Source: Glutamicibacter soli (GTDB taxonomy: Bacteria; Actinomycetota; Actinomycetes; Actinomycetales; Micrococcaceae). From it: a stretch of 64,000 nt of DNA. The stretch is taken from positions 496,001 to 560,000 of the forward strand of contig NZ_POAF01000003.1 in the NCBI RefSeq assembly GCF_003309065.1. The letters run 5' to 3'. Numbering within the stretch: the stretch's first letter is position 1; every line of letters begins with the position of its first letter. The notes beneath the pieces are model-generated. The model did not search any database, was not told where the DNA came from, and saw only the letters and a list, made by a program, of their open reading frames with translations. A program made the translations under genes and the position numbers. Positions 19,348 through 43,400 of the stretch are shown here, piece by piece.

Positions 19348-19360
19348 TATCGAGGTGATA
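19348..19360. promoter_or_regulatory. TATCGAGGTGATA, candidate LysR-type site
   Basis: This sequence has TATC-N5-GATA symmetry, that is T-N11-A as LysR regulators favour, followed by GC. It lies between the upstream terminator and the reductase/P450 operon. Related sites occur at 29550, 33493, 39110 and 43221. Confidence 0.5.
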
Positions 19361-19428
19361 GCCCAGTGCTTGCAGACTGCGAAAAGATTCGTTGATCGCT
19401 GATGATGCGATCCTCCGGGTTAACGGCG

Positions 19429-19473
19429 CGCGGCGCCCCGAAAGGAGAGATTCTCTCTTTTCGGGGCGCCGCG
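19429..19473 (-). terminator. Terminator after the acyl-CoA dehydrogenase operon
   Basis: A 15-bp perfect stem CGCGGCGCCCCGAAA (19429-19443) pairs with 19459-19473, and inner GAGAG/CTCTC pairing extends it. It starts five bases beyond the dehydrogenase stop. Confidence 0.85.
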
Positions 19474-19477
19474 AGGC

Positions 19478-20725
19478 CTAGGCGTTGGCCGGGACCTTCT
19501 CCTCGCGCAGCGCACGCTGGCGCTTGAGCTCATTGCGGGCCAGGGCGTTCTTGTGCACCTCGTCCGGGCCGTCGGCGAAGCGCAGGGTGCGGATGTAGGC
19601 GAAGCCCTCCGCCAGGTTGAAGTCCTGGGACAGGCCTCCGGCGCCGTGCACCTGGATGGCCTTGTCGAAGATCCACTCGATGGCCTGCGGGGTGGCGATC
19701 TTGATCGTCTGGATTTCGGTGTGGGCACCCTTGTTGCCCACGGTGTCCATCAGCCAAGCGGTCTTCAGCACCATCAGCCGCAGCTGCTCGACCCGCACGC
19801 GGGATTCGGCGATCCAGTCGCGGATCACGCCCTGCTCGCTGAGGGTCTTGCCGAAGGCGGTGCGGGAGTCGGCGCGGGCGCACATCATCTCGATGGCGCG
19901 CTCGGCCATGCCGATGGCGCGCATGCAGTGGTGGATGCGGCCAGGACCCAGTCGGGCCTGGGCGATGCCGAAGCCGCCGCCTTCCTCGCCGATAAGGTTG
20001 GAGACCGGGACACGCACGTTGTCGAACTCGATCTCGCCGTGGCCGCCGTTGTAGTGGTCCTTGAAGCCCATCACGTCCATTGAACGCAGGACCTTCAGGC
20101 CCGGGGTGTCGCGCGGGACGATGATCTGCGACTGCTGGCGGTGGCGTGCCTCGGTCGGATCGGTCTTGCCCATCACGATGAAGAACGCGGCATCCGGGTT
20201 CAGCGCGCCGGTGATGAACCACTTGCGGCCGTTGATGACATACTCGTCGCCCTCGCGGCGGATGCTGGTCTCCACGTTGGTGGCGTCCGAGGAAGCCACC
20301 GCCGGTTCGGTCATGGCGAAGGCGGAGCGGATCTCGCCGTTCAGCAGCGGCGTCAGCCACTTCTCCTTCTGCTCTTCGGTGCCGAATTCGTTCAGCAGCT
20401 CCATGTTGCCGGTGTCCGGGGCGGCGCAGTTCAGCGCCGCCGGAGCCAGCGTGCGGGCACGGCCGGTGATCTCGCACAAGGTCGCGTACTGCACATTGGT
20501 CAGGCCAGCGCCCCGCTCGCCGGGCAGGAACAGGTTCCACAGGCCGCGGCGGCGGGCCTCGTCGCGCAGCTCGTTCAGGATCTTCGAGCGGGTGAAGGCA
20601 TACGGCTCAGGCATGGCTTCCAGCTCTGCCTCGTACGCTTCCTCGTTCGGGTAAACGAACTTCTCCATGAAGTCCTCAAGTTCTGCCTTGAGGGCTTCGG
20701 TGCGTGCATCCATTGCGAATTCCAT
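19478..20725 (-). CDS. Acyl-CoA dehydrogenase family protein
   Basis: A 415-aa FAD flavoprotein that should form the enoyl-CoA in a beta-oxidation-like step and pass electrons to ETF. FAD and substrate motifs FAMTEPAVASSDATN and GRKWFITGA are visible, and the C-terminal domain ends with the usual helical bundle (VHGAGGLSQDFNLAEGFAY). ATG 20725 follows GGAG with eight bases and begins right after the phosphotransferase stop. The pairing with a phosphotransferase mirrors the ACAD10/ACAD11 domain pair, where a kinase domain works with the dehydrogenase on 4-hydroxyacyl-CoAs. Last gene of its operon. Confidence 0.93.
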   Translation of the reverse strand: MEFAMDARTEALKAELEDFMEKFVYPNEEAYEAELEAMPEPYAFTRSKILNELRDEARRRGLWNLFLPGERGAGLTNVQYATLCEITGRARTLAPAALNCAAPDTGNMELLNEFGTEEQKEKWLTPLLNGEIRSAFAMTEPAVASSDATNVETSIRREGDEYVINGRKWFITGALNPDAAFFIVMGKTDPTEARHRQQSQIIVPRDTPGLKVLRSMDVMGFKDHYNGGHGEIEFDNVRVPVSNLIGEEGGGFGIAQARLGPGRIHHCMRAIGMAERAIEMMCARADSRTAFGKTLSEQGVIRDWIAESRVRVEQLRLMVLKTAWLMDTVGNKGAHTEIQTIKIATPQAIEWIFDKAIQVHGAGGLSQDFNLAEGFAYIRTLRFADGPDEVHKNALARNELKRQRALREEKVPANA

Positions 20726-21808
20726 TTACTTGTACTCCTTCATTGCGTCCAGTCCAAGTTCCAATAGCAGCGGGACTGCATAGCCCGCGTTTTCAAATCC
20801 CTCGCCCAGCGTCTGGCGGTTCAGGTGCCTGAAGCGCACGCCTTCGGAGATGCCGGCCAGCTTGAAGCAGGCCAGCCCCAGGTAGAAGCCGAAGCCGGTG
20901 AGCTTGCGGCCGCTTTCCTGTTCATAGAGCGAGATGATCTCTTCTTCGTCCAGGTAGCCCTCGGCCAGGGTGACATCGAGTTCGTCCTTGTTGGTGCTGT
21001 CCCAGTCCGCGACGATCTTCGCGCGGCGCTGGTAGACCAGCATCAGGGCCAAGTCCAGCAGCGGGTCGCCCAGCGTGGCCATTTCCCAGTCGATGACGGC
21101 GGCCGGCTTATCGTCCGGGCCCATCAGCACGTTGTCCAGGCGGAAGTCGCCGTGCACGATGCCGGGCACGGAGTCCTGCGGCACATTGGCCGCCAGCAGC
21201 TCGTAGAGCTCGTCCGCGCCGGGCAGTTCCCGGGTCTTGGAATTTTCCATCTGGGTTTTCCAGCGCTTGACCTGGCGTTCCAGGTAGCCCTGCGGGCGGC
21301 CGAAGCCGCCCAGGCCCACCGCTTCGAAATCCACCTGGTGCAGCTTGACCAGGGTGCGCACCAACTCGATGGAGATCTCGCGGGCACGCCGGGCGCCCAG
21401 CGGCTCCAGTTCCTGCTTGTAGCGGTACGGGACGCCGTTGACCTTTTCCATCAGGTAGAACTCGGCGCCCAGCACCTCCTTGTCCGCGCAGTAGGCGATC
21501 ATCTGCGGGACCGGGACCTCGGTTCCGGCCAGCGCATGCGCCATGTCGTATTCGCGGCGCATGTCATGGGCCGTGGCCATGACGTTGCCCAGCGGCGGGC
21601 GGCGGATGATCCACTCACTGCTCCCGTCGCCCAGCAGATAGGTCAGGTTGGACTTGCCGCCGGTGATCAGCGTGGCGGACAGGTCGCCGGCGACCAGGCC
21701 GGGGTGGTTCGTGTCCAGCCAGCTTTTCAAGGCCGGCAGGTCCAGGCCCGCCGGCGAGGACACCTGCGCCGTCTGGGTCTTCTCAGCTGAAGTCATGGGT
21801 TGGTTCAC
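20726..21808 (-). CDS. APH-like phosphotransferase (ACAD10/11-type kinase)
   Basis: A 360-aa protein-kinase-like fold enzyme. The catalytic loop is HGDFRLDNVLMGP and the metal-binding segment is VIDWEMATLGDPLLDL, as in aminoglycoside-phosphotransferase-like proteins. In ACAD10/11-type systems such a domain phosphorylates a 4-hydroxyacyl-CoA before the dehydrogenase acts. That role is inferred from direct adjacency to the acyl-CoA dehydrogenase. GTG 21808 overlaps the stop of the binding-protein gene (GTGA); ATG 21796 is an alternative. Antibiotic resistance is unlikely in this context. Confidence 0.85.
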   Translation of the reverse strand: MNQPMTSAEKTQTAQVSSPAGLDLPALKSWLDTNHPGLVAGDLSATLITGGKSNLTYLLGDGSSEWIIRRPPLGNVMATAHDMRREYDMAHALAGTEVPVPQMIAYCADKEVLGAEFYLMEKVNGVPYRYKQELEPLGARRAREISIELVRTLVKLHQVDFEAVGLGGFGRPQGYLERQVKRWKTQMENSKTRELPGADELYELLAANVPQDSVPGIVHGDFRLDNVLMGPDDKPAAVIDWEMATLGDPLLDLALMLVYQRRAKIVADWDSTNKDELDVTLAEGYLDEEEIISLYEQESGRKLTGFGFYLGLACFKLAGISEGVRFRHLNRQTLGEGFENAGYAVPLLLELGLDAMKEYK

Positions 21809-22914
21809 GCCCTTGCGAATTCGGGTACGAGGGATTCATAGGTGATGTCGCCCTTCTTGACGCTGCCGAAGCGCAAGGCCAGGTCGGCCATGTGCTCGAC
21901 GGTCTTGCGGTCCGCCTTGAACATCGGCTGCAGTTTCGGGGCGATGTCGTTGGAGTAGTGCTCCACGTATTCGGTAGCGATGTTCATGCCCTTGCCGCCC
22001 AGCGCGGTGTCGTTCATGATCTTGGCGGCGGCTTCCTTGTTCTGCAGGATCCAGTTCTTCGCATCGTCCTGCGCGGCCAGCCACTTCTGGGCGATGCCCG
22101 GATCCTTCTCGACCATTTCCTCGCGCATGCCGATGGCCACCACGGCCTGGTTGCGCATCATGTCCGGGACGTTCGGCTCCGCGAAGTCGATCAGCACGGT
22201 GCCGCCGGATTCCTGGGACACGTAGCGGGTCGCGGTCCACTGCACCGTCACGTAGGCGTCGATGCGGTCGGCCTTCAGGTTCGGAATCGCCTGCGCGGTA
22301 GGCCCGACGGCCAGCGCGGTGACGTCCGAGTACTTCATGCCGGCAAGTTCCAGGGCCAGCTTCAGCTGCAGGTCGCCGCCGGCGCCCACGCTGGTCACAC
22401 CCACGCGCTTGCCCTTCAGCGAGGCCATCTTCTCCTCGAAGCTCGCGTCCTTCGACGGCCACTGGTGCTTGGATGCGCCCACGATGCCGTAGGTGGTCTC
22501 GACCATGCGGAAGCCCAGCAGCAGCGGACGCTTGCCCTTGGTGGAGTTCGCGTGGGTCGCCAGCAGCAGCAGGGTGTCGGCGGCGTAGCCGTCAATCGCC
22601 CCGGCGGTCAGCAGCTGGAAGGCCTGGACGCCGCTCTGCGGGTTCAGGTGCTTGTCCACCTTCAGCCCGTGGTTCGCATAGTCCTTGTTTTCCAGGTTGA
22701 GCGTGTCCAGGAAGTAGGCGTCGCCCGGGAAAGAAGCCACGTTGAACGGCTGCAGGTCTCCGGCGGAGGCATTGCCCCCGGCACCGCACGCGGACAGCAG
22801 CGAAGCTGCACCCAGCGCGGCCGACCCGGCGCCCAAGTACTTGAGCAGGGACCGGCGGGACAGTCCGCCGGCAGGTGCTGCCGCCAGCTGGTTCTGGTGG
22901 TACGTCATTGTCAC
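21805..22914 (-). CDS. ABC transporter substrate-binding protein, SsuA/NMT1-like, Tat-exported lipoprotein (copy 1)
   Basis: A 369-aa binding protein. The N-terminus has a twin-arginine motif SRRSLLKYLG followed by a hydrophobic stretch and a lipobox LSAC, so it is probably folded before export and then lipid-anchored. The mature part resembles SsuA/TauA/NMT1 proteins, which bind sulfonates, aromatic acids or pyrimidines. GTG 22914 or ATG 22908 can serve as start after AAGGAG. There is no permease or ATPase adjacent. A paralogue is at 41628-42839. It should feed the permease (31642-32493) and ATPase (33748-34596). Confidence 0.88.
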   Translation of the reverse strand: MTMTYHQNQLAAAPAGGLSRRSLLKYLGAGSAALGAASLLSACGAGGNASAGDLQPFNVASFPGDAYFLDTLNLENKDYANHGLKVDKHLNPQSGVQAFQLLTAGAIDGYAADTLLLLATHANSTKGKRPLLLGFRMVETTYGIVGASKHQWPSKDASFEEKMASLKGKRVGVTSVGAGGDLQLKLALELAGMKYSDVTALAVGPTAQAIPNLKADRIDAYVTVQWTATRYVSQESGGTVLIDFAEPNVPDMMRNQAVVAIGMREEMVEKDPGIAQKWLAAQDDAKNWILQNKEAAAKIMNDTALGGKGMNIATEYVEHYSNDIAPKLQPMFKADRKTVEHMADLALRFGSVKKGDITYESLVPEFARA

Positions 22915-23004: not shown

Positions 23005-24036
23005 CTATGCGGTGTGCTCCATGACCACACGCCCCACGGTTTTGCCGTCGGCCAGGCGCTGCAGCCCGGCCGGTACGCCGTCGATGCCGAAGCGCTCCGA
23101 GACGAACGGGTTGATCTTCCCGGCGTCGGCCAGCTTGGTCAGCTCTGCATGGCAGTCGTCCACGACCTGCGGGTTCTTCTTGTTGTACAGGCCCCAGTGG
23201 ATGCCGAGGATCGCGTAGTTCTTCACCAGCGCGTGGTTCAGCTTGGCGCTCTGGATCTCGCCGCCGGCGAAGCCGACCACGATGATGCGTCCTTCGAAGG
23301 CGATGCACTTGGTGGACTTCTGGTAGACCTCGCCGCCCACCGGGTCGTAGACCACGTCGGCGCCGCGGCCGTCGGTGAACTCGTTGACCACGGCCACGAA
23401 GTCCTCCTTGCGGCGGTCGATGACCAGGTCCGCGCCGAGCTTGCGGGCGTAGTCGGCCTTGGCCTCGCCGCCCACCACGCCGATGACCGTGGCCCCGGCG
23501 GCCTTGCCCAACTGGATGGCTGCCGAGCCCACGCCGCCGGCGGCGGCATGCACCAGCAGCACCTCGCCGGGCTGGATGCGGGCCAGCCGGTGCAGGCCCA
23601 CCCAGCCGGTCTGGTAGCCGATGAACAGGCTGGCGGCCTGCGCATTGTCCAGGGAATCCGGCGCCTGGTGCACCACGTTCTGGTCCATCACCGCGTAGTC
23701 GGCGAACCCGCCGTAGGGCAGGGTGGTCAGGCCCAGCACGCGGTCCCCCACCTTGGCACGGGTGACGTTCTTGCCGGCGGCGATCACCGTGGCGCAGACC
23801 TCGCGGCCCGGGGTGAAGGGCAGGTCGGGCTTGACCTGGTATTCACCGCGGCACATCAGCACGTCGGGGAAGTTCGCGGCCGAGGCCAGGACCTTGACGA
23901 GCACCTGCTCGTCGCCGATGGACGGCACCACGTATTCAGCGAATTTCAGCGCATCGGCTGGGTCGCCCAGTTCCATGACCGACCAGGCCTTGAGCATGGT
24001 CGGCAGCTGCAGTTCTTCACTGGTTGCCACTGGCAT
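23005..24036 (-). CDS. NADPH:quinone oxidoreductase family protein (zinc-free MDR)
   Basis: A 343-aa medium-chain dehydrogenase/reductase without the catalytic zinc ligands of alcohol dehydrogenases. The cofactor loop is AAAGGVGSAAIQLGKAAGA (about residue 150), and LPYGGFADYAVM is typical of the quinone oxidoreductase/enoyl reductase branch. It may reduce a quinone or an enone or enoyl-CoA intermediate. It follows the biotin carrier gene by three bases, with its ribosome binding site inside that gene's end, so it belongs to the carboxylase operon. Confidence 0.88.
   Translation of the reverse strand: MPVATSEELQLPTMLKAWSVMELGDPADALKFAEYVVPSIGDEQVLVKVLASAANFPDVLMCRGEYQVKPDLPFTPGREVCATVIAAGKNVTRAKVGDRVLGLTTLPYGGFADYAVMDQNVVHQAPDSLDNAQAASLFIGYQTGWVGLHRLARIQPGEVLLVHAAAGGVGSAAIQLGKAAGATVIGVVGGEAKADYARKLGADLVIDRRKEDFVAVVNEFTDGRGADVVYDPVGGEVYQKSTKCIAFEGRIIVVGFAGGEIQSAKLNHALVKNYAILGIHWGLYNKKNPQVVDDCHAELTKLADAGKINPFVSERFGIDGVPAGLQRLADGKTVGRVVMEHTA

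Positions 24037-24263: not shown

Positions 24264-24267
<4 letters not shown>
24040..24267 (-). CDS. Biotin carboxyl carrier protein of an acyl-CoA carboxylase
   Basis: A 75-aa free-standing biotinyl domain. The biotinylation site is EAMKMEI with Lys in the centre, flanked by the usual VSPGDVVEEDDTL and LVAEGDSVGPGQ turns. ATG 24267 overlaps the carboxylase stop (ATGA); ATG 24261 has better spacing to GGAG. It carries CO2 between the biotin carboxylase and the carboxyltransferase encoded just upstream. A separate carrier, rather than one fused to the carboxylase subunit, is notable for actinobacteria. Confidence 0.93.
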
Positions 24268-25649
<1,382 letters not shown>

Positions 25650-25659
25650 GCGTTTCTCC

Positions 25660-27225
25660 TTAGAAGCTGGTTGGCCACATGCTGAGGTTGTGTTCGCTGA
25701 TGCCGCCGGTGCGGGCGTTGAACTGGTCGGACAGGGATCCGAGGATGAACTCGCGGGTCTCGGCCGGGTCGATGACCTGCTCGAAACCGAACACGCGTCC
25801 CACGTCGTAGGCGGAGGTGCCCTTGCTCATCTCGGCCAGGCGCTGCGCGTACTCCTCCGGGTTCTCCTGCGGGTCCACGCCGTGCACCACGGAGACGGCG
25901 CTGGTCGGATCCATGAAGGAAACCTCGGTGCTCCACCAGCCGGCGGTCGCGTCGGCGGTGCCGCCGCCGCCCATGTTGATGAATGCCTGGCCGTAGTTCT
26001 TGCGCATGGTGACCGCGATCTTCGGGACGGTGACCAGGGACAGCGCGTTCATCCAGTTAATGATCTTGCCGGCGACCTTGCTACGCTCGGCCTCCAGGCC
26101 GATCAGGAAGCCGGGCTGGTCGACCAGGTGCACCACCGGGATGTTGTACGAGTCGCACAGCACCAGGAAGCTGGTGGCCTTGTCGCAGGCCTGGCCGTCC
26201 AGGGCGCCGCCCTTGAACTTCGGGTTGTTGGCGATGATGCCCACGCTCTGACCGCCGATGCGGGCCAGGGCCGTGACCAGGGACTTGCCGTAGCGGGCCT
26301 TGAGCGGGAAGACCGAGCCGGTGTCCGCGATGACCTCGATGACCTGGCGCACGTCGTAGGTCTGGGTGCGTGATTCCGGGACGATATCCTTGATGCGGTC
26401 CTGGTTCTCCCCCGAGCCGGAAGGGATCGGCGCGGTCGGCGGCAGTTCGCCGTTGTGGCTTGGCAGGTAGGACAGGAAGCGGCGGATCAGCTCGATGGCT
26501 TCCTCGTCGGTGTCGGCCACTGCATCGGCGTAGCCGGTGATGTCCGAGTGGACCTTCCAGCCGCCCAGCTCCTGGGCGTCGACCTTCTGGCCGGTGGCGC
26601 GGGAGACCAGGTTCGGGCTGGAGACCGCCAGCACGCTGCCTTTGCGGAAGACCGCGAAGTCCGAGGAGACGGTGTGCCATGCGGCCGAGCCGAAGCAGTA
26701 GCCGAAGGCCGCAGCGGCCCACGGGGCTTCGCGCTTGCGCAGGAAGCGGGTCTTGGAGTTCGAGTTGCCCATGCCGGTGCCGCCCATGGCGTCGGGCATG
26801 CGGATGCCGGTGGATTCGTTCAGGTAGACCAGCGGCACGCCTTTCTTCGCGGACAGCGCCTTGAAGTGGCTCATCTTCTTGTTGGAGACCGGCGAGGAGG
26901 AGGATCCCTTGACGGTGAAGTCGTAGGCGCAGACCGCGGCGCGGCGTCCCTCGATGTCGCCGGTGCCGGTGATCTTGCCGTCGGCCGGGGTCTTGTCGCG
27001 GTCCGCCTCCACGGCGGAGGTGGTGAACAGGCCGGATTCGCGGAACGTTCCCGGGTCCAGCAGCAGGGCCAGGCGTTCGCGGGCGTTGAGCTTGCCCTCG
27101 GCGCGGCGCGCCTCCAGCTTGCGGGTTCCGCCCATGGCCAGAGCCGCGTTGCGGCGTGCTTCGTGCTCCTGCTCGCGGGTCAGTTCCACGGCGGCTTCTG
27201 CTTCCTTGACTGCTTCCTGTGTCAT
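25660..27225 (-). CDS. Acyl-CoA carboxylase beta (carboxyltransferase) subunit
   Basis: A 521-aa carboxyltransferase with the paired crotonase-like halves of propionyl-/methylcrotonyl-/geranyl-CoA carboxylases. Recognisable segments are MGGTRKLEARRAEGKLNARE at the start, ADTGSVFPLKARYGKSLVTA, and NMGGGGTADATAGWW near residue 430. It transfers CO2 from carrier biotin to an acyl-CoA. The substrate could be a branched or cyclic enoyl-CoA, but cannot be fixed from sequence. It begins four bases after the CoA ligase stop, so the two are co-transcribed. Confidence 0.93.
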   Translation of the reverse strand: MTQEAVKEAEAAVELTREQEHEARRNAALAMGGTRKLEARRAEGKLNARERLALLLDPGTFRESGLFTTSAVEADRDKTPADGKITGTGDIEGRRAAVCAYDFTVKGSSSSPVSNKKMSHFKALSAKKGVPLVYLNESTGIRMPDAMGGTGMGNSNSKTRFLRKREAPWAAAAFGYCFGSAAWHTVSSDFAVFRKGSVLAVSSPNLVSRATGQKVDAQELGGWKVHSDITGYADAVADTDEEAIELIRRFLSYLPSHNGELPPTAPIPSGSGENQDRIKDIVPESRTQTYDVRQVIEVIADTGSVFPLKARYGKSLVTALARIGGQSVGIIANNPKFKGGALDGQACDKATSFLVLCDSYNIPVVHLVDQPGFLIGLEAERSKVAGKIINWMNALSLVTVPKIAVTMRKNYGQAFINMGGGGTADATAGWWSTEVSFMDPTSAVSVVHGVDPQENPEEYAQRLAEMSKGTSAYDVGRVFGFEQVIDPAETREFILGSLSDQFNARTGGISEHNLSMWPTSF

Positions 27226-27229: not shown

Positions 27230-29440
27230 TTACTTTCCTTCTGAGGCGTCAGCCAGCTGGTGGATGTGTTCGCTTTGTTCCAGGACCGCGCGGGTGGCCA
27301 GCGCGGCGTCTTCGAAGGCGTCGAAGACGGGGATGCCGATGGCGCGGGCGCGCTGGGCGTAGCCGGAGATCATGTCCTCGGTCTCCACGCTGCCGTCGGT
27401 CTTGAGCACCAGGATCTGGTGGGTGTTGGTCTGCGCGGCGTCGCGGGCCGCGGCGATGGAGTCGATGATGTTGCCGGTGACGTCCCCGAGGGTGGCGCCG
27501 AGGTTGCGCTGGATGATGCCCACATTCAGGTGGGTGATCAGTACTGCGGGTTCGGCTCCGGCGAGCACGGTGCCCAGGATGTCCTGCGCGATGTGCCCCT
27601 TCTTTACGGCCAGGGTGCCGGCCGGGACGTCGATCGGGTTGTGGAAGCCGTTGCCCGGCGGCACGTCCAGGGATTCGAGCTTCTCGATGACCGCCTGGGG
27701 CAGCGGTGCGGTGCCCACTTTCTGGCGGGAGAGCGCGTCAGCGCCGAGCACCGAGGCGCCGCCGCCGTTGCCGAAGAGCACGGCTTCGGTGTTCTGCGGC
27801 TTGACCGACAGGTCAAGGGTGGACAGGGCGTGCAGCGCGCTGGTGAAGTCGGCCAGCGAGTCGACCAAGGTGATGCCGGCTTGGCGGGCGATGGCAGGCC
27901 ACAGGCGGTGGTTGCCGGCCAGGGCGCCGGTGTGGCTGGTGGCCGCGCGGGAACCGCCGGAGGTGCGGCCGCCGGCCAGCAGGACCACCGGCTTGCGGAC
28001 CGGGGCCTGGGCCAGCACGTCCAGCACCTCGCGGGCGATGCCCAGCGACTCCAGGTACAGGCCGATGACCGAGACCTCGTCGTCGGCCAGGTGGGAGCGC
28101 AGCAGCTCGCCGGCGGTGATGTCCGCGCTGTTGCCCACCGAAACCACCGAGTGGAAGGCGATGCCGTTGGCGGCGCCCATGCGCAGGATGTCCACGCTCA
28201 GCCCGCCGGACTGCGAGACCACGGCGGTCCCGCCCTGGCGCAGCGGAGCCTGCGGGAGGAACGAGTAGCGTCCGGGCGAGGAGTGGGTGCCCAGGCAGTT
28301 CGGGCCGATCAGGCGGATGCCGGCGTCCTTCACGGTGCGGATCAGCTCGGCTTCCAGTTCGCGGCCTTCGGCGACCTCGGAGAAGCCGCTGGAGATGACC
28401 TGAGCGAAGCGCAGCTTGCCGGCGCCTTCGGCCAGCGAGCTGGCCACGCGGGAGGCGGGCAGCGCCACGAAGGCGTAGTCGGCCGGTTCGGTGAGCTCGG
28501 CCAGGGAGTTGATGGCCGGCAGGCCTTCGATGGTGTCGGCGGTCGGGTTGACCGGGATGATCTCTCCGTCGAAGCCGCCGTCGGTGATGTTGCGGATGAA
28601 GCGGTTGGCCATGTTCGGCTTCTTGCCGCTGGCGCCGAGCACCGCGATGCGCTTCGGGCGGATCAGCGCGGAGAAGTCGGTAGGCTGCTGGGTTTCCAGG
28701 CTGCGCGGGGCTTCCTGGGGGGCGCCGACCACGAATCGGGCGTCCACGGCGACCGCGCGGTCCGCGGAGACGATGACCGGGTTCAGGTCGATTTCCAGCA
28801 CCTCGTCGGGCAGCTGCGCGAGCAGTCCCTCGGGGCCGGCCAGGCGGCCGATGAGGCCGATAAGCGCCGGGATGTCGGCCTTCAGGCCGCCGCGGGCGCC
28901 GTTGAGCACCTTCAGGCCCTTGAGCTCGCCGAGCATGGCGGAGATCTGGGCCTCGGTCAGCGGGGCCAGACCGAAGCTGACATCCTCGAAGACCTCTACC
29001 AGCACGCCGCCCAGGCCGACCATGACGGTCCAGCCCAGGCCGGGGGTGCGCACGGCGCCGACGATGACCTCGTGGCCCGCCGGGATCATTTCCTCGACCA
29101 GCACGCCCTCGAGCTCGTGGCCGGCGGCGGCCAGCGAAGCGCGCATGGCCTCGGTGACCTCGGGAAGCTGCGCGGCGGTGACGTTGACCTTCACGCCGCC
29201 GGCATCGGATTTGTGCACCAGCGTCGCGGAGACTGCCTTGACGACCAGCGGCTCGCGCAGTTCGGTCGGAACCGGCGCACCGAGCTCAAGCGCGACGCCC
29301 CGCGGGGTGTCGATGCCGAAGTTGGAAAGCAAGGCCTTGCCTTCTGTCTCGGTGAACATGGCCGACTCCCGGGCCGCGGCCTGGGCGACCAGCTTGGCGA
29401 GGAACTCGGAGCTGTTGTGTTGGGCGGTTGCGATGGACAA
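27230..29440 (-). CDS. Acyl-CoA synthetase, NDP-forming (acetate--CoA ligase family)
   Basis: A 736-aa single-chain NDP-forming ligase that activates an acid with CoA and ATP. An ATP-grasp domain comes first (residues about 20-235, LLSNFGIDTPRG and onward), then a Rossmann CoA-binding domain (IAVLGASGKKPNMANRFI, about 260) and the ligase domain with the phosphorylated His in SHTGALAGN near residue 505. Many relatives have the ATP-grasp part last. TTG 29440 is the start after GTGAGG. It heads the operon ligase-carboxylase-quinone oxidoreductase, with TATC/GATA sites about 110-140 bases upstream. Confidence 0.9.
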   Translation of the reverse strand: MSIATAQHNSSEFLAKLVAQAAARESAMFTETEGKALLSNFGIDTPRGVALELGAPVPTELREPLVVKAVSATLVHKSDAGGVKVNVTAAQLPEVTEAMRASLAAAGHELEGVLVEEMIPAGHEVIVGAVRTPGLGWTVMVGLGGVLVEVFEDVSFGLAPLTEAQISAMLGELKGLKVLNGARGGLKADIPALIGLIGRLAGPEGLLAQLPDEVLEIDLNPVIVSADRAVAVDARFVVGAPQEAPRSLETQQPTDFSALIRPKRIAVLGASGKKPNMANRFIRNITDGGFDGEIIPVNPTADTIEGLPAINSLAELTEPADYAFVALPASRVASSLAEGAGKLRFAQVISSGFSEVAEGRELEAELIRTVKDAGIRLIGPNCLGTHSSPGRYSFLPQAPLRQGGTAVVSQSGGLSVDILRMGAANGIAFHSVVSVGNSADITAGELLRSHLADDEVSVIGLYLESLGIAREVLDVLAQAPVRKPVVLLAGGRTSGGSRAATSHTGALAGNHRLWPAIARQAGITLVDSLADFTSALHALSTLDLSVKPQNTEAVLFGNGGGASVLGADALSRQKVGTAPLPQAVIEKLESLDVPPGNGFHNPIDVPAGTLAVKKGHIAQDILGTVLAGAEPAVLITHLNVGIIQRNLGATLGDVTGNIIDSIAAARDAAQTNTHQILVLKTDGSVETEDMISGYAQRARAIGIPVFDAFEDAALATRAVLEQSEHIHQLADASEGK

Positions 29441-33368: not shown

Positions 33369-33492
33369 GTTGATCCTCCAGGTGATGGGTCTTGGGATGG
33401 CATTGCGGGCTCCAGTCGGAGTGATCGAAACCGCAAGCGATGCGTTTGTGAAAGCTTCTAATCGTTTTCAATCGCGGGCAACAAGAATCCAG

Positions 33493-33507
33493 CTATCGTC
33501 GCGATAG
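33493..33507. promoter_or_regulatory. CTATCGTCGCGATAG palindrome, candidate LysR-type operator
   Basis: Six-base arms CTATCG/CGATAG around a 3-base centre; the inner TATC-N5-GATA equals T-N11-A. It is the most symmetrical of the TATC/GATA sites. It lies in the 379-base divergent region between the SDR/permease operon (minus) and the ATPase/hydrolase/BVMO operon (plus), well placed to control both. I see no other feature in that gap. Confidence 0.6.
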
Positions 33508-33747
33508 GGCTTGAACGCCCCGGTTTTCCTTGACTCGTTTGACGGGTGTTGAAACGATTCCTACACCGGCAAGTGATGCAGACCACAGCATTTCCGTTCT
33601 CGTGAACAGGGTCGTCATTGCACCGCTAAAACTCGCTGACAAGCGCAAAGAGCATGTCGGCAGGTCCCGACAACTACCCAGCCCTTGGAGCGAATGCGAC
33701 CCGATGACAGCGCATCGCTCAAGACCGAGAGTAAGAGTGAGGTTCCC

Positions 33748-35445: not shown

Positions 35446-35495
35446 CGCGCGCCCGTCCCCACTTGACACGACACAACTGTTTCAACGGAGAAATC

Positions 35496-37409
35496 ATGCA
35501 AATCACCACCGGCACCCTGGCCGAAACGCTCAACATCGAGGATCTTCGCGCGAATATCGATTCGGCCCAGACCCCGGCCCTGATCATGCTCACCGCCCAC
35601 GTCACCTCCGACACCTCGGTGCTCAAGGATGAATGGCGCCCGAACCTGCGCACCCTGCCTTCCAGCGGGCTGAGCCCGGAAGCCGATGCCGCGGCGCGCG
35701 AGCTGTGCCTGAGCCTGCTGGAGCCGTTCCTGCCGCAGCAGCACACTTGGGCCGAAACCCTGGACGATTCGGTGCGCATCGCCATCAGCAACTGGCTGAT
35801 GGGCGCGGTCAACGAGGATGCGCTGACCCTGTCGAAGGTCGCCTTCACCTCCAACACCGGCGATCCGCGCGCACCGCAGTGGACCCTGGACGACATCGCT
35901 CCGGGCAGCGAGCTGACCGCGACCGTGATCGGCACAGGCTTCTCCGGTCTGATGGCCGCGCTGCGCCTGAAGCAGGCCGGCGTCCCGTTCACCATCATCG
36001 AGAAGAACACCGGCGTGGGCGGCACCTGGTGGGAGAACACCTACCCGAGCTGCCGCACCGACGTGCGCAGCCACATCTACACCTACTCCTTCCGCCAGCT
36101 CAACTGGGAAACCCACTTCGGCCGCCAGGACAGGATCCACGACTACCTGCACGACTTCGCAGCCGACAACGGCCTGCTGGAGCACGTCGCATTCGGCGTC
36201 GAGGTCACCAAGGCCGTCTTCAACGAAGACACCCAGACCTGGAGCCTGGAGACCAAGGACCTGAACGGCAACGTCGCCACCCACGAGACCAGCATCGTGA
36301 TCAGCGCCGTCGGCCAGTTGAACCGTCCGTCCATCCCGAACCTCCCGGGACTGGACAGCTTCACCGGACCCAAGGTTCACTCGGCGCTGTGGGACCACGA
36401 GCTGGACTTCACCGGCAAGAAGGTGGCCGTCATCGGCACCGGCGCCTCCGCGCTGCAGTTCGCCCCGGAGGTCGCCAAGGTCGCTTCCAAGGTCACGATC
36501 TTCCAGCGTTCGGCCCCATGGCTGCGCAAGACTCCGGTGCTGCGCCAGGAAGTCCCCGCCGGCGAGCGCTGGATGATGGACCACCTGAACCAGTACCGCG
36601 CGTTCTACCGCTTCTCCATCTTCCTGCCCCGCCTGATCGGCAACCTGCCGGCAGCCACCGTGGATCCGGACTACCCGCCCACCGAGCGAGCGGTCTCGGC
36701 AGCCAACGACGCGCTGCGTCAGGAACTGACCGAGTACCTGGTCGAGCAGGCCGGGGACCGCGAGGACCTGCGCGAGCAGATCATCCCGAACTACCCGCCG
36801 GCAGCCAAGCGCATCATCTGCGACGACGGCACCTGGGTCTCCACCCTGAAGCGCGAGAACGTCCAGCTGGTCTCCCACGCGGTGCAGAAGATCGACGAGA
36901 CCGGCGTCTGGGCCGGCGACGAGCACTTCGACGCGGACATCATCCTGTTCGGCACCGGCTTCAAGGCAGCAGACTTCCTGCTGCCGATGAAGGTCGAGGG
37001 CCTGAACGGCCAAGACCTGCATGAGAAGTGGGGCATCGACGCGAGCGCCTACCTGGGCACCGCGCTGCCGGGCTTCCCGAACTTCTTCTGCATGTACGGC
37101 CCGAACACCAACACTGTGATCCACGGCAACCTGGTCTTCTTCCTCGAATGCCAGGCGAACTACATCCTCAGCGCTATCAAGACCCTGGCCGAAACCGGCA
37201 GCAAGTCGATGAACCTGCGCGACGACGTGTTCGACGCCTACGACAAGCTGATCGTCTCCGAAAGCGCCAAGCGCACCTGGGGCTGGTCCAAGACCCACTC
37301 CTGGTACATGAACGCCGAGGGACGCTCCACCATCATGTGGCCGCTGCCGGCCATCGAGTACTACCGGCGCACCGCGCAGGTCGACCCCGCAGAATACGAA
37401 CTGAGCTAG
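35496..37409 (+). CDS. Baeyer-Villiger monooxygenase, HAPMO-like with N-terminal extension
   Basis: A 637-aa FAD/NADPH enzyme inserting oxygen next to a ketone. The first Rossmann motif GTGFSG is at 146-151, the BVMO fingerprint FTGPKVHSALWD at 289-300 and the second Rossmann motif GTGASA at 314-319. The extra 140 N-terminal residues and total length are characteristic of 4-hydroxyacetophenone-monooxygenase-type enzymes. ATG 35496 follows GGAG; an upstream TTG is unlikely. An alpha/beta hydrolase gene lies on each side, as expected when the ester product is split next. A terminator hairpin follows immediately. Confidence 0.92.
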   Translation: MQITTGTLAETLNIEDLRANIDSAQTPALIMLTAHVTSDTSVLKDEWRPNLRTLPSSGLSPEADAAARELCLSLLEPFLPQQHTWAETLDDSVRIAISNWLMGAVNEDALTLSKVAFTSNTGDPRAPQWTLDDIAPGSELTATVIGTGFSGLMAALRLKQAGVPFTIIEKNTGVGGTWWENTYPSCRTDVRSHIYTYSFRQLNWETHFGRQDRIHDYLHDFAADNGLLEHVAFGVEVTKAVFNEDTQTWSLETKDLNGNVATHETSIVISAVGQLNRPSIPNLPGLDSFTGPKVHSALWDHELDFTGKKVAVIGTGASALQFAPEVAKVASKVTIFQRSAPWLRKTPVLRQEVPAGERWMMDHLNQYRAFYRFSIFLPRLIGNLPAATVDPDYPPTERAVSAANDALRQELTEYLVEQAGDREDLREQIIPNYPPAAKRIICDDGTWVSTLKRENVQLVSHAVQKIDETGVWAGDEHFDADIILFGTGFKAADFLLPMKVEGLNGQDLHEKWGIDASAYLGTALPGFPNFFCMYGPNTNTVIHGNLVFFLECQANYILSAIKTLAETGSKSMNLRDDVFDAYDKLIVSESAKRTWGWSKTHSWYMNAEGRSTIMWPLPAIEYYRRTAQVDPAEYELS

Positions 37410-37473: not shown

Positions 37474-38337
37474 ATGCCTACGAACACGGCAACTATCACC
37501 GAGACCACTGCGGTGGTCGCCAACTTGGAAACCCGCTACTTCACCGGCGGGCCTGAAATCGGGACCCCCGTGGTCTTCATGCACGACGGCGCCTGGGGCG
37601 GCGCCACCGATATCACCTGGGGCAAGGTGCTGCCGCTGGCGGCCGAGACCTACCGCGTGATCGCCCCGGACTTCCTGGGCTACGGCGGCACCGCCAAGTC
37701 GGTGCGCGTGGACGTCTCCCCGTTCGCCTTCCGCATCCGCCACGTCTTTTCGCTGCTGGACCAGCTGGGCATCACCGAACCGGTGCACCTGGTGGGCAAC
37801 TCCTTCGGCGGCTCCATGGGCCTGCGCGCCCTGAGCGACCCGGCCTACCGCGACCGCATTGCGTCCGTGACCACCATCAACGGCACCGGCGGCCCTTGGA
37901 AGACCGAGGACATGGCCAAGATCGGCGCCTTCGACGGAGAGCGCGAATCCATGGAAGCCATCGTTGAGATCCTGTGTGACGAGTCCGAGGACCGCCAGGA
38001 GCTCGTCGACGCCCGCTTCGCCTGGGCCCGCACCCCCGGCCACTTCACCTGCATGCGCGCCCCGCACTTCCCGATCCCTGACGCGCTGAAGGCCGAGCGC
38101 CCTGCAGATCCGTTCCCGGAAAACCTGCGCGGCATCACCACCCCGGCGCTGCTGCTCGAGGGCGCCAACGACACCCTGCTGGAATCCGGCTGGAACCAGA
38201 AGCTGGCCGAGCTGCTGCCTGGCGGCGTGGCCAAGACCATCGAGGCCAAGCACTGCCCGAACATCACCCATCCCGAGCAGACCTGGGAGATCATCAACGA
38301 GTTCCTGTCCGCACAGGTTGCAGGAGGCAAGGCATGA
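37474..38337 (+). CDS. Alpha/beta hydrolase, meta-cleavage-product-hydrolase-like
   Basis: A 287-aa hydrolase. The segment MHDGAWGGATDITWGKVLP is the oxyanion region; the nucleophile elbow is GNSFGGS with Ser near 110, and the catalytic His is near the end in HCPNITHPEQ. The pattern is close to C-C hydrolases acting on ring-fission products, but ester or lactone hydrolysis is equally possible. ATG 37474 follows GGAGGAACC. Its stop overlaps the next SDR start (ATGA), so the two are coupled. Confidence 0.87.
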   Translation: MPTNTATITETTAVVANLETRYFTGGPEIGTPVVFMHDGAWGGATDITWGKVLPLAAETYRVIAPDFLGYGGTAKSVRVDVSPFAFRIRHVFSLLDQLGITEPVHLVGNSFGGSMGLRALSDPAYRDRIASVTTINGTGGPWKTEDMAKIGAFDGERESMEAIVEILCDESEDRQELVDARFAWARTPGHFTCMRAPHFPIPDALKAERPADPFPENLRGITTPALLLEGANDTLLESGWNQKLAELLPGGVAKTIEAKHCPNITHPEQTWEIINEFLSAQVAGGKA

Positions 38338-39032
38338 GCAAGCCGGCACTGGTGATTTCCGGCGGTTCCTCCGGCATCGGCGAAGCGCTGGTCGAGGACC
38401 TGCGCAAGGACTGGGACGTCTTCTCGGTCTCCCGTTCGCTGCCCAAGAACCCGCTGGAGGGTGTGCACTACGTCGCCGGGGATGTCGCCGGCGACGCGGC
38501 CTCAAATGTCCGCGAGGCCCTGGCGGCCGCAGGCCACACGAGCATCCACTCGCTGATCCACTGCGCCGGCGTGGGCCTGTTCGGCCCGTTCCTTGAAACC
38601 ACCAAGGCGGATTGGGAACGCACGCTGATGCTGAACCTGCACGGCACCCTGAACTTCGTGCAGGGCTTGGCAGATCTGGTGCAGGATTCGGGCCGCGTGC
38701 TGCTGTATTCCTCGGGCACCGTGTTCAAGGCTCCGGGCGGCTCGGCCGCCTACGCCGCGTCCAAGGCAGGCATCATCGGTTTTGCGCGCAGCTTCGCCGT
38801 GGAGATGGGCGCACGGGACATCACCGTCAACGTAATCGCCCCAGGGCTTGTCATCACGCCGCTGGCGGCCGACCTGGCCAAGGGCGAGGAGGCGAATATC
38901 GCCACCCGCGCCATCAAGCGCCCGTCCGTGGTCCAGGACTACGTGGGCCCGACCCGTTTCTTCCTCTCCGAGGGAGCCGGGTTCGTTTCCGGGCAGACCC
39001 TGGTGGTTGACGGCGGATCCATCCGCCGCTGA
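38334..39032 (+). CDS. SDR family oxidoreductase
   Basis: A 232-aa short-chain dehydrogenase, on the short side for the family. The cofactor motif is SGGSSGIGEAL at residues 9-19; HCAGVG replaces the usual NNAG, and the catalytic part YSSGTVFKAPGGSAAYAASK is intact. The start overlaps the hydrolase stop. The protein should reduce or oxidise a hydroxyl/keto group in the same branch as the hydrolase. This is the third SDR within 9 kb. Confidence 0.88.
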   Translation: MSKPALVISGGSSGIGEALVEDLRKDWDVFSVSRSLPKNPLEGVHYVAGDVAGDAASNVREALAAAGHTSIHSLIHCAGVGLFGPFLETTKADWERTLMLNLHGTLNFVQGLADLVQDSGRVLLYSSGTVFKAPGGSAAYAASKAGIIGFARSFAVEMGARDITVNVIAPGLVITPLAADLAKGEEANIATRAIKRPSVVQDYVGPTRFFLSEGAGFVSGQTLVVDGGSIRR

Positions 39033-39109
39033 TTTCCCCTGCCCAGACGGCGGGTGTCGAGAGTTCCTCGGCGCCCGCCACCGGCTTTTAAGCACCCATA
39101 TGAGTGCGA

Positions 39110-39124
39110 TATGACCGTGATAGC
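39110..39124. promoter_or_regulatory. TATGACCGTGATAGC, candidate LysR-type site
   Basis: It resembles the sites at 19348 and 33493 (TATN-N5-GATAGC), and another GATA follows at 39125. It lies 48 bases upstream of the exporter gene, in its promoter region. Confidence 0.4.
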
Positions 39125-40444: not shown

Positions 40445-40465
40445 ATGCCTGTTTCCTGAGTTCCC

Positions 40466-41683
40466 CTACTTCAGGGTGAAGCGCAGCGGCACCGAGGACC
40501 AGCCGCGCAGCACGTTGTTGTGGTGGTAGCCGACCTCGCCGGCCAGCTCGATGGAATCCACGGTATCCAGCAGCTTCTCCAGCAGGCAGGCCGCCTGCAG
40601 CCGGGCCGCGTGCTGGCCCACGCACTGGTGCACCCCCATGCCGAAGGCCAGGTGGCCCGAGGGGTCCCGGGACAGGTCGAACTTGTCCGGGTCCTCCCAG
40701 CGGCGCGGGTCCCGGTTGGCCGCCGGATAGCACATGAGCACCTTGCTGCCCTCGGGGATGGTGATCCCGCCGACCTCGAAGTCCCTGGCCGCGGTGCGGA
40801 ACATGGCCTGCACCGGGGACACCCAGCGCAGCGCCTCGTCGAAGGCAACCCGGGCCAGGGACGGGTTGGCCTTCAGCTTCTCCCACTGCTCGGGGTTGGT
40901 GGCCAGCGCGTAGAGCAACCCGGAGATTCCGTAGATGGTGGTGTCCACCCCGGCGGTGATCAGCGAGCTGCCCAGCAGCGCCGCGTTCTCATGCAGAATG
41001 TCCCCGCGATCCGCGGCGGCCCAGATGTCCGCGCCGAAGCCCTCGGACTTCAGTTCCTCGCGCTGGCACTTCTGGTACAGCCACGCCGCCAGCTCCGGGG
41101 CCCTGCGCTCCCCCGCCTTGACCAGGTCGTTGTAGGGGCCGGCGGTATTGAAGTTGTGGTCCGCGAACTCGACGAACTTGTCCCTCGCGCATTCATCGAC
41201 CCCGGACGCGTCGGGGAAGAAATCCACCGGTAGCATCGCGGCGATCTGCGCATGCCCGTCGACGGCCAGGCTGTCCCCGGAGCTGCTATCGGCCAGCAGG
41301 CCGTCCACCAGGGTGTCCACGCGGGCCATGCAGGTTTCGCGCAGGCCGCGCAGGGCCCGGGCGGAGAGGATCTCCTGCAGCACTTCGCGCGGAGCGTCAT
41401 GCAACGGCGGATCGGTCTGCAGCAGCCCCTTGGGCGAGTCGAGCTCGCGGATACTCACCCCGTCCCCCGACTTCAGGTCCTGCCACGCGCACAACGCATC
41501 GGACAGCTCGGCGAAGCGGCCGATCGCGTAGACGCCGTAGCGCGAGAGGAACGCCACCGGCCCTGCCTCGCGCAGCCGCTCTTGGAACGGCAGCGGATCT
41601 TCCAGGACTTCGGCGCTGAACGGATCGTCATCGATGATCGGGACCGTTCCTTCGGCCATGGGACAACGTGAGGTGACGCTCAT
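40466..41683 (-). CDS. Cytochrome P450, CYP199-like (copy 2)
   Basis: A 405-aa P450 paralogous to the one at 17047-18264 and of the same length. The I helix reads SLITAGVDTTIYGI, ExxR is EALRWVSP and the heme loop FGMGVHQCVGQ has Cys at 354. I chose ATG 41683 (GAAGGAG six bases before); upstream in-frame starts lie inside the binding-protein gene and add unrelated residues. No reductase is adjacent, so it probably shares the reductase at 18277-19299. It overlaps the preceding binding-protein gene by 56 bases. It likely hydroxylates a related or downstream substrate. Confidence 0.92.
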   Translation of the reverse strand: MSVTSRCPMAEGTVPIIDDDPFSAEVLEDPLPFQERLREAGPVAFLSRYGVYAIGRFAELSDALCAWQDLKSGDGVSIRELDSPKGLLQTDPPLHDAPREVLQEILSARALRGLRETCMARVDTLVDGLLADSSSGDSLAVDGHAQIAAMLPVDFFPDASGVDECARDKFVEFADHNFNTAGPYNDLVKAGERRAPELAAWLYQKCQREELKSEGFGADIWAAADRGDILHENAALLGSSLITAGVDTTIYGISGLLYALATNPEQWEKLKANPSLARVAFDEALRWVSPVQAMFRTAARDFEVGGITIPEGSKVLMCYPAANRDPRRWEDPDKFDLSRDPSGHLAFGMGVHQCVGQHAARLQAACLLEKLLDTVDSIELAGEVGYHHNNVLRGWSSVPLRFTLK

Positions 41684-42839
41684 GCAACTGCTCCTTCGTG
41701 ATCGATCCTGCTGCGGGAAAATGGCGGCGGGCGAACTCGGGCACCAGCGACTCGTAGGTGATGTCGCCCTTCTTGATGCTGCCGAAACGCAGCCCGACTT
41801 CGGCCATGCGCTCCACAACGTCCTTGGGCACCTTGAACATCGGCTGCAGCTTCGGTGCCACGTCGGCGGCGTAGTGGTCCATGTAGGCGCTGGCGATTTC
41901 CAATCCGCTGCCGCCCAGGGCGGTGTCGTTCAGGATCTTCGCGGCTCCGGCCTTGTCGTTGAGCATGAACTCGTGGGCGTCGTTCTGGGCCAGCAGCCAG
42001 TTGTTCACTGCCTGCGGCTTCTCGGCGATGGTCTTCTCGTTGGCGATGATGGAGACTACCGCCTGGTTGCGGATCACGTCAGGCGAGCTGGCCTCCGCGA
42101 AGTCCACCAGCACCTCGCCGCCGGTTTCCTGCGCCACGTAGCGGGCGGTGGTCCACTGCACACCCACGTAGGCGTCGATGCGGTTGGCCTTCATGTTCGG
42201 GATCGCCTGGGCGCCCAGGCCCACTGCCAGCACGGTGACGTCGCTGTACTTCAGTCCGGCTTCTTCCAGCGCGAGCTTCAGCTGCAGGTCGCCGCCCGAA
42301 CCGATGGCCGGCACGCCGACCTTCTTGCCCTTCAGGGACTTGATCTTCTCCACGAAGCTCGCATCCGCCGACGGCCAGCTGCCGCTCTTGGACCGGGCGA
42401 TGCCGTAGGTGGTTTCCATGGTGCGGAAGCCGATCAGCTGCGGCTTCTGCCCCTTCTGGCTGTTCGCGTGCGTCACCATGAGGTTCAGCGTGTCCGCGGC
42501 CATGCCCTCGACCGCTCCGGCGGCCAGCAGCTGGAACCCCTGGACGCCGCTGGAGGGCACGATGTGCTTGGGAACATCCAGGTGGCGCTTGGCGTAGTCC
42601 TTGTTCTGCGCGTTGATCGCGTCGATCACGAACCCGTCGCCGGGAACTGTCGAGATGTTGAACTTGATAGTCTCCTCGCCCGGCGCGGCGGTGGTGGATC
42701 CGCCGCAGGCTGCCAGCAGCGGCGCGGTGCCCAGTACGGCGGCGCCGAGGCCGGCGAACCTCAGGATTGACCGGCGTGAAATGTCGTTCTGCGGAAGTAG
42801 GAGTTTGCCTTGCGAGCCAAGCTGTCCTGAGCGGTTCAT
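41628..42839 (-). CDS. ABC transporter substrate-binding protein, SsuA/NMT1-like, Tat-exported lipoprotein (copy 2)
   Basis: A 403-aa paralogue of the protein at 21805-22914. It has a twin-arginine motif SRRSILRFAG, hydrophobic stretch and lipobox LAAC near residue 45. Similarity runs to the shared end YESLVPEFAR, after which copy 1 stops almost at once while copy 2 continues 33 residues through the P450 ribosome binding site and start. That tail looks like an accidental extension after loss of the original stop. It is co-transcribed with P450 copy 2. It should use the single permease and ATPase of the island. Confidence 0.88.
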   Translation of the reverse strand: MNRSGQLGSQGKLLLPQNDISRRSILRFAGLGAAVLGTAPLLAACGGSTTAAPGEETIKFNISTVPGDGFVIDAINAQNKDYAKRHLDVPKHIVPSSGVQGFQLLAAGAVEGMAADTLNLMVTHANSQKGQKPQLIGFRTMETTYGIARSKSGSWPSADASFVEKIKSLKGKKVGVPAIGSGGDLQLKLALEEAGLKYSDVTVLAVGLGAQAIPNMKANRIDAYVGVQWTTARYVAQETGGEVLVDFAEASSPDVIRNQAVVSIIANEKTIAEKPQAVNNWLLAQNDAHEFMLNDKAGAAKILNDTALGGSGLEIASAYMDHYAADVAPKLQPMFKVPKDVVERMAEVGLRFGSIKKGDITYESLVPEFARRHFPAAGSITKEQLHERHLTLSHGRRNGPDHR

Positions 42840-43400
42840 GTCCCCATGCCTTTACGTCGTCAAAAGTTCGGTGGTGCGATGTTTTGCCGTGCCGCGATTC
42901 CTTGGACCGCGGGACGGCGCTTGCAGGCCGAGCAGCTTCCGCGGCTTCGGTGGAGCGTGCGCCGGGTCCGACTGCGCTGTCGGCACCGGAAGCCCGGACC
43001 GCATGGTGCGGTCCGCTCCCGAGAAGTCCTCGAAGCTCCGATCGACCCCGCAGCGGCGGGCCCGATCTGGCGTCAGCATCGCATCAACGCCTTCGCCTGG
43101 GTCTCCGGCATGCGTCCGCCCGAGGCGGAGGGCCTTGCCGAAAGATGCGCGTGATTTGCGCGTGGAATCAATACTGTTAGGTAGCTCACGTTTTCGGTAG
43201 GCAAATTCCCTGCTCATACCGATAGCCATCGGCTATCACTCAGGACCCACTGCCGCACTGCCATCCATGGGGGAAGATCGGCGCAACTCCGCGGTTTCCG
43301 CGCCGGGCGGCGCGGCCGTGCAGGGCGCCGAAACCGCCTTAATACGTGATGCATTTTCTCGACAGGCCCGCTGCCCCAACCTATGATGGCGGCGCAAAAA
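42840..43400. other. Long leader region upstream of SBP2/P450 copy 2
   Basis: A minus-strand frame (42852-43229) is open for 125 codons but has no recognisable motif and atypical composition, so I do not call it a gene. The stretch probably holds the promoter and an untranslated leader of the binding-protein gene, with the GATA-N9-TATC site at 43221-43237 near its far end. Confidence 0.4.
43221..43237. promoter_or_regulatory. GATAGCCATCGGCTATC palindrome, candidate LysR-type site
   Basis: GATA-N9-TATC with inner GCC/GGC symmetry gives 7-base arms around a 3-base centre, and the block is flanked by CC and AC. It has the same GATA-N9-TATC layout as 29550-29566. It lies about 380 bases upstream of the binding-protein start. 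Confidence 0.5.

What the first reader, a model, noticed from the sequence alone, without database searches (positions are those of the whole stretch)
19348..43237. Recurring TATC/GATA promoter sites suggest one LysR regulon across the catabolic island
Seen: TATCGAGGTGATA (19348), GATA-N9-TATC with doubled GCGCTATC (29550-29579), CTATCGTCGCGATAG (33493), TATGACCGTGATAGC (39110) and GATAGCCATCGGCTATC (43221), each in an intergenic region upstream of a different operon: P450/reductase, CoA ligase/carboxylase, importer permease and ATPase, YeiH exporter, binding protein/P450. Half-sites also precede the alcohol dehydrogenase at 50471. Known: LysR proteins bind T-N11-A palindromes. Inference: the LysR at 29696-30613 ties these operons into a single, apparently undescribed pathway.
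Basis: partly seen in the sequence, partly recalled or inferred. Interest (0 to 1): 0.75.

Follow-up and report, generated by a model that had tools for sequence, protein, structure and literature searches.

The report
One LysR switch, one catabolic cluster
Four of the five flagged DNA sites look like real docking sites of one LysR-type regulator of a conserved degradation gene cluster in Arthrobacter-like bacteria; the fifth belongs to a different regulator linked to a yeiH-like exporter gene.

Summary
The five strings are present, and the two exact patterns exceed chance in the window. Comparative footprinting supports four as one operator family. Ten other genomes carry the same cluster, with LysR orthologues 76-87% identical. 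TATC-N5-GATA occurs 20 times in about 513 kb; all 20 lie at two promoters (ABC ATPase/SDR and reductase-P450). GATA-N9-TATC is centred 117-120 nt before the CoA ligase in 10 of 11 genomes. Boxes keep near-fixed spacing to candidate -35 hexamers: 23 nt (centre -65, the textbook LysR position) or 12 nt (centre -55), one helical turn apart. A divergent, reshuffled cluster (LysR 55%) has three strict boxes in 40 kb, all before expected operons; a more divergent one (LysR 49%) has none. LysR is the only transcription factor seen in the conserved cluster. Corrections: 39110 is the conserved operator of a YeiE-like LysR linked to yeiH; the 50471 half-sites are absent in the one relative compared; 43221 is weaker; no box precedes LysR itself (0 of 11); the short motif alone is not specific genome-wide. 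Binding is inferred, not shown. This is a new regulon of a known kind; the catabolic substrate is unknown.

The parts
29696..30613 (-). LysR-type regulator, proposed activator
   Evidence: HTH_1 and LysR_substrate; orthologues 76-87% identical in 10 cluster-bearing genomes
33494..33506 (.). Box 1, T-N11-A, shared by the divergent ABC ATPase and SDR1 promoters
   Evidence: TATC-N5-GATA at this place in 11 of 11 genomes; 23 nt before TTGACT towards ABC, 12 nt before TTGCCC towards SDR1
29552..29564 (-). Box 2, T-N11-A (core of 29550-29566), CoA ligase promoter; extra GATA half-site at 29572-29579
   Evidence: Strict in 10 of 11 genomes, centre 117-120 nt from the predicted start; PWM 38.0 against best background 8.7
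19348..19360 (-). Box 3, T-N11-A, reductase/P450 promoter
   Evidence: Strict in 9 of 10 genomes where the promoter is held; PWM 20.8 (symmetric) or 28.2 (oriented) against best background 19.1 or 16.8
43221..43237 (-). Box 4, GATA-N9-TATC palindrome, SBP2/P450b promoter
   Evidence: Similar box before the extra SBP copy in C2, G211 and G166; core PWM 16.1 against best background 15.1, but 3.4 on the 27-mer matrix, with 24 background places at or above it
33530..33558 (+). Candidate ABC promoter TTGACT-N17-AACGAT
33452..33481 (-). Candidate SDR1 promoter TTGCCC-N18-AAGCTT
29500..29528 (-). Candidate CoA ligase promoter TTCCAA-N17-GAGACT (weak)
19306..19335 (-). Candidate FdR promoter TTGCTT-N18-GATGAT, 6 nt before ATG (possibly leaderless)
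43171..43199 (-). Candidate SBP2 promoter TACCGA-N17-CAGTAT (weak)
32532..33368 (-). SDR1
   Evidence: Pfam
31642..32493 (-). ABC permease
   Evidence: Pfam
30718..31560 (-). SDR3
   Evidence: Pfam
27230..29440 (-). ADP-forming-type acyl-CoA ligase
   Evidence: Pfam and below-cutoff NCBIfam matches
25660..27225 (-). Carboxyltransferase
   Evidence: Pfam
24264..25649 (-). Biotin carboxylase
   Evidence: Pfam
23005..24036 (-). Zinc alcohol dehydrogenase (ADH0)
   Evidence: Pfam
21805..22914 (-). NMT1-like solute-binding protein (SBP1)
   Evidence: Pfam
20726..21808 (-). APH-type kinase
   Evidence: Pfam
19478..20725 (-). ACAD11-like acyl-CoA dehydrogenase
   Evidence: Pfam, PDB
18277..19299 (-). 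2Fe-2S reductase (FdR)
   Evidence: Pfam
17047..18264 (-). CYP199-like P450
   Evidence: Pfam, PDB
33685..34596 (+). ABC ATPase
   Evidence: Pfam
34633..35445 (+). Alpha/beta hydrolase 1
   Evidence: Pfam
35463..37409 (+). Baeyer-Villiger-type monooxygenase
   Evidence: Pfam, PDB
37474..38337 (+). Alpha/beta hydrolase 2
   Evidence: Pfam
38334..39032 (+). SDR2
   Evidence: Pfam
40466..42839 (-). Second SBP/P450 pair (SBP2, P450b; inner boundary approximate)
   Evidence: Pfam
39097..39124 (+). Excluded: yeiH-linked operator of a YeiE-like LysR
   Evidence: Related element before yeiH in 18 of 18 other loci aligned; YeiE-like gene adjacent to yeiH

Best explanation
The four sites 19348, 29550, 33493 and 43221 are primary operators of the LysR-type protein at 29696-30613. 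It most likely works as a classical LysR activator: it sits on a T-N11-A box centred at -65 (ABC ATPase, CoA ligase, SBP2) or -55 (SDR1, FdR-P450) and, on binding a pathway metabolite, reaches weaker contacts near -35 and recruits RNA polymerase to weak promoters. One box serves two divergent promoters (ABC and SDR1). About 18 core genes plus SBP2/P450b would be induced together. Shown: conservation, position, spacing to candidate promoters, co-occurrence with this LysR. Inferred: that LysR binds, that it activates, the inducer and the start sites.
For: All 20 strict TATC-N5-GATA matches in 12 tracks (513,254 bases, window included) lie at ABC/SDR1 (11 of 11 genomes) or FdR (9 of 10); 20 first-order simulations of the relatives average 0.8 (largest 3) against 18 seen. 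CoA ligase box in 10 of 11 genomes within diverged intergenic DNA. Spacing to -35: ABC 23 nt in 10 of 11 (22 in one); FdR 12 nt in 9 of 10 (11 in one); SDR1 12 nt in 10 of 11 by script and in the window after correction; CoA ligase read at a fixed 23 nt gives TTC- hexamers in 11 of 11, with GAGACT (9) or CACACT (2) 17 nt on. MYb227's displaced FdR gene keeps its box. Divergent G758 cluster: 3 strict boxes in 40 kb, before ABC/SDR1, FdR and SBP. Seven further gene families shared by three or more flanks are not transcription factors. Helix residues QPTITNQ are identical in 12 of 12 LysR proteins whose clusters have boxes; G802, whose cluster has none, reads QPTISTQ.
Against: No binding data. 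The pattern alone is as common in same-genus genomes lacking this LysR. Two arrangements (CTAT-N7-ATAG and ATAG-N7-NTAT) must be read by one protein. No box within 200 nt upstream of LysR (0 of 11), unusual for this family. Box 4 is only marginally above background and not above it on the longer matrix. Candidate -35 and -10 hexamers were picked from the alignments by eye before the script, with no null for spacing. The ten relatives are not independent events. G802 (LysR 49%, 26.8 kb held) has no strict box, and the helix correlation rests on that one case.
Confidence: 0.77

Rival explanations
1. Two regulators: LysR binds the CoA ligase/SBP class (ATAG-N7-NTAT) and an unlinked factor binds the TATC-N5-GATA class.
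For: The two classes have opposite half-site arrangements, and LysR dimers usually fix orientation (recalled).
Against: Both are T-N11-A, and the 23-nt spacing occurs in both; in G758 the SBP operon carries the TATC class, while the extra SBP copies of C2, G211 and G166 carry the ATAG class; no second conserved transcription factor among the families examined.
Confidence: 0.14
2. The sites are operators, perhaps for repression, of another regulator encoded elsewhere in the genome.
For: Palindromic boxes fit many regulator families; the LysR promoter lacks the box.
Against: Inferred centres at -65 and -55 upstream of weak -35 elements fit LysR activation; this LysR accompanies the boxes in 12 of 12 clusters that have them.
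Confidence: 0.06
3. Chance palindromes.
For: The short pattern occurs elsewhere in the genome.
Against: 20 of 20 strict class-A matches lie at two promoters, with near-fixed spacing.
Confidence: 0.02

Closest known systems
ThnR (LysR-type, tetralin genes, strain TFA; PMC4834489, passages seen)
   Same: LysR activator of several catabolic promoters including a close divergent pair; sites one helical turn apart
   Different: There each divergent promoter has its own site, one shifted a turn upstream (-75), and ThnR needs ThnY; here one box would serve both promoters and the shifted class is a turn closer (-55, inferred)
BenM/CatM (LysR, benzoate catabolism)
   Same: Among the best-scoring solved relatives of this LysR; ATAC-N7-GTAT-type boxes (recalled)
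   Different: Distant in sequence, different pathway; TATC-N5-GATA boxes also used here
YeiE-YeiH (PMC12880088, passages seen)
   Same: Explains the 39110 site: LysR divergent from yeiH
   Different: Different LysR, different box, not part of this regulon
LvaA/LvaC and ACAD10/11 (PMC12440821, PMC11342911; start of abstracts seen in the listing)
   Same: APH-type kinase with ACAD11-like dehydrogenase, a pairing used for 4-hydroxyacyl-CoA
   Different: Here in a P450/Baeyer-Villiger/carboxylase cluster; the reaction is not tested

Membership tests
LysR-type regulatory system | HTH_1 plus LysR substrate-binding domain | tested here: met
LysR-type regulatory system | T-N11-A box upstream of target promoters | tested here: met
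LysR-type regulatory system | Box centred near -65 | tested here: inconclusive
   Fits at ABC and CoA ligase, and -55 at SDR1 and FdR, but only from predicted promoters
LysR-type regulatory system | Regulator gene divergent from its target and autoregulated at the shared box (usual, not obligatory) | tested here: not met
   LysR is co-directional with its neighbours; no box within 200 nt upstream in 11 of 11
LysR-type regulatory system | DNA binding and inducer response | not testable with these tools
   Needs protein work
YeiE-YeiH regulation (site 39110) | Conserved operator between yeiH and a divergent YeiE-like LysR in relatives | tested here: met
   CATATCA-N4-CATATG in 18 of 18 other yeiH loci aligned; YeiE-like best hit adjacent to yeiH in 7 of 7 genomes with a match, of 9 searched
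YeiE-YeiH regulation (site 39110) | LysR adjacent in the window copy, operator unchanged | tested here: not met
   The window yeiH is a second copy with a variant element (CATATGAGTGCGATATG) and no adjacent LysR; the intact pair is at G000:C19:168261-170266

The most novel reading that the evidence does not exclude
An undescribed catabolic pathway for a cyclic carboxylic acid (ABC import, CYP199-like hydroxylation, oxidation to a ketone, Baeyer-Villiger ring expansion, lactone opening, CoA activation, kinase/dehydrogenase removal of the hydroxyl, carboxylation), run by one LysR that reads two box arrangements at two helical phases, with a single box firing two divergent promoters.
Probability: 0.35. 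Interest if true: 0.6.

Novelty: new member of a known kind. Interest (0 to 1): 0.45.

Why it matters
It gives a compact, testable regulon for a conserved cluster whose substrate is unknown: the boxes say which genes act together, and promoter fusions could be used to screen for the inducer and so the pathway's substrate. The two spacing classes offer a natural test of how LysR activators tolerate a one-turn shift.

Tried and rejected
Rejected: 39110 and 50471 as members. Considered: a second conserved regulator near the cluster. Seven unnamed gene families (ORFs of at least 90 aa, at least 50% identity) are shared by three or more of the held flanks; all seven were scanned and none is a transcription factor (thiolase, MaoC, histidine phosphatase, enoyl-CoA hydratase, NIPSNAP, amidase, HbpS-like). 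Mixed families containing SDR3, ACAD or ADH0 homologues were not scanned separately. A LAL/LuxR-type gene (10192-13011) is not in a family shared by three or more genomes. Boxes before LysR: none in 11 of 11. Genome-wide counts of the short motif do not separate genomes with and without the LysR. Divergent G802 cluster: no strict box. The pattern search was mis-spaced and found nothing; the alignment was read by eye and recounted. Literature: listings (5 of 5 papers shown; 10 of 1,838; 1 of 1) showed no paper recognisable as describing this cluster; this covers only the held open-licence library.

Dropped before counts: the SaccB track (overlaps Sacc; no strict match) from totals; in the FdR spacing count Sacc and SaccB are one genome; cavernae's contig ends before FdR. 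The window's SDR1 row picked an earlier TTG at 9 nt; TTGCCC lies at 12 nt.

Full report
Setting. The window is part of a 3.84-Mb genome (G000, contig C19: 496001-560000). Named relatives with the LysR are mostly Arthrobacter-type actinobacteria.

Observation. All strings are present. In the window TATC-N5-GATA occurs twice and GATA-N9-TATC three times, against 0.05 and 0.08 expected from shuffles. Genome-wide the short motifs are not specific: 2 of 4 TATCRNNNYGATA places and 3 of 6 GATAG-N8-TATC places of G000 lie in the window, but 10 same-genus genomes without a close LysR orthologue also have 3-8 of the former, and the reversed-pattern control gives 3 in G000.

The cluster. The LysR has close orthologues (E at most 1e-45) in 9 of 395 family genomes including its own, and in Rhodococcus koreensis and Saccharopolyspora shandongensis. 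Ten other genomes carry the same cluster: SDR1, permease, SDR3, LysR, CoA ligase, carboxyltransferase, biotin carboxylase, alcohol dehydrogenase, SBP, kinase, acyl-CoA dehydrogenase, reductase, P450 on one strand, and ABC ATPase, hydrolase, Baeyer-Villiger-type monooxygenase, hydrolase, SDR2 divergently. Exceptions: the Saccharopolyspora locus has no SDR3 hit there and only partial ABH1 and ADH0 hits; the cavernae contig ends before ACAD; MYb227 has FdR-P450 displaced; C2, G211 and G166 have an extra SBP. Further samples gave few more: 2 of 394 class genomes (own and G758), 2 of 49 genomes of G758's genus, 1 of 396 phylum genomes (own) at E at most 1e-60.

Footprints. In 12 tracks totalling 513,254 bases, 20 of 20 strict TATC-N5-GATA matches lie between ABC and SDR1 (11 of 11 genomes) or upstream of FdR (9 of 10; Saccharopolyspora has a one-base variant). 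Of 20 strict GATA-N9-TATC matches, 14 lie at CoA ligase (10 of 11; 4J27 has a one-base variant) or before an extra SBP copy (window, C2, G211, G166), and 6 elsewhere. First-order simulations of the relatives averaged 0.8 and 0.7 against 18 and 17 seen. The relatives share ancestry, so these are not independent events; the argument is that the boxes persist while surrounding intergenic DNA has diverged. The extra SBP copy's promoter resembles the CoA ligase promoter; in G166 the likeness continues into the leader (read by eye).

Specificity. Weight matrices trained without the window score boxes 1 and 3 at 23.7 and 20.8 against a best background of 19.1 in 400 kb of the same genome; on the oriented matrix box 3 scores 28.2 and box 1 18.7 (12.8 on the other strand) against 16.8; box 2 scores 38.0 against 8.7. 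Box 4 scores 16.1 against 15.1 on the core matrix and only 3.4 on the 27-mer matrix; it is the weakest of the four.

Geometry. From the 13-bp T-N11-A box to the candidate -35 hexamer: ABC 23 nt (10 of 11, 22 in one), CoA ligase 23 nt (fixed offset; TTC- hexamers in 11 of 11), extra SBP 23 nt (fixed offset, weaker hexamers, 4 loci), FdR 12 nt (9 of 10, 11 in one), SDR1 12 nt. With 17- and 18-nt spacers these place box centres at -65 and -55. The hexamers were chosen by eye from the alignments, and no start site is mapped. A T-N11-A site centred near -65 is the textbook primary site, and ThnR shows that a one-turn shift, upstream in that case, can be tolerated (PMC4834489, passages).

Divergent test. 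G758 (LysR 55%, cluster order changed) has exactly three TATC-N5-GATA boxes in 40 kb: ABC/SDR1, FdR and before SBP; its CoA ligase has only a one-mismatch box, read by eye. The SBP operon thus carries one box class in G758 and the other at the extra SBP copies of C2, G211 and G166, which argues for one reader of both. G802 (LysR 49%, smaller cluster, 26.8 kb held) has no strict box; its LysR reads QPTISTQ where all 12 box-bearing clusters read QPTITNQ.

The 39110 site. Before yeiH, 18 of 18 other loci aligned (17 from other genomes, one the second copy in G000) have CATATCA-N4-CATATG running on into an ATAG/ATGG stretch, GATAGC in 8 of 18. The YeiE-like best hit is next to yeiH in 7 of 7 genomes with a match, of 9 searched, including an intact pair elsewhere in G000. 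In Salmonella, YeiE binds a fragment with the yeiE-yeiH intergenic region (PMC12880088, passages). The window's yeiH is a second copy carrying a variant of this operator (39097-39124) without its regulator.

Pathway (inferred). CYP199-like P450, Baeyer-Villiger-type monooxygenase, ACAD11-like dehydrogenase with APH-type kinase (compare the ACAD10/11 and Lva listing), acyl-CoA carboxylase with an apparent biotin carrier, and an NMT1/SsuA-like importer suggest degradation of a cyclic carboxylic acid via a lactone. The substrate is not established.

Limits. No binding, expression or start-site data. No box precedes LysR itself (0 of 11).

Noticed in passing
24037-24263 (-): The gap between biotin carboxylase and ADH0 encodes a small open frame with EAMKMEIPV, an apparent biotin carrier, conserved in relatives.
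   Followed up: partly
30640-30700 (-): LysR's own upstream region has a different conserved element, about TGTGATCGNGGTAACGT, in several relatives; unexplained.
   Followed up: no
39172-40248: Second yeiH copy with a variant YeiE-type operator but no adjacent regulator.
   Followed up: yes
L041, L046, L049 (C2, G211, G166): Extra SBP copies sit behind what looks like a duplicated CoA ligase promoter.
   Followed up: partly
13297-13313: Strict GATA-N9-TATC match inside the predicted thiolase gene, also in MYb213; probably coding.
   Followed up: partly
L029 around 10180: The LysR match in Arthrobacter cavernae is split into two overlapping pieces; frameshift or sequencing error.
   Followed up: no
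8871-9953 and 54198-54785: IS110-type transposase and an IS481-like fragment lie on either side of the region.
   Followed up: no
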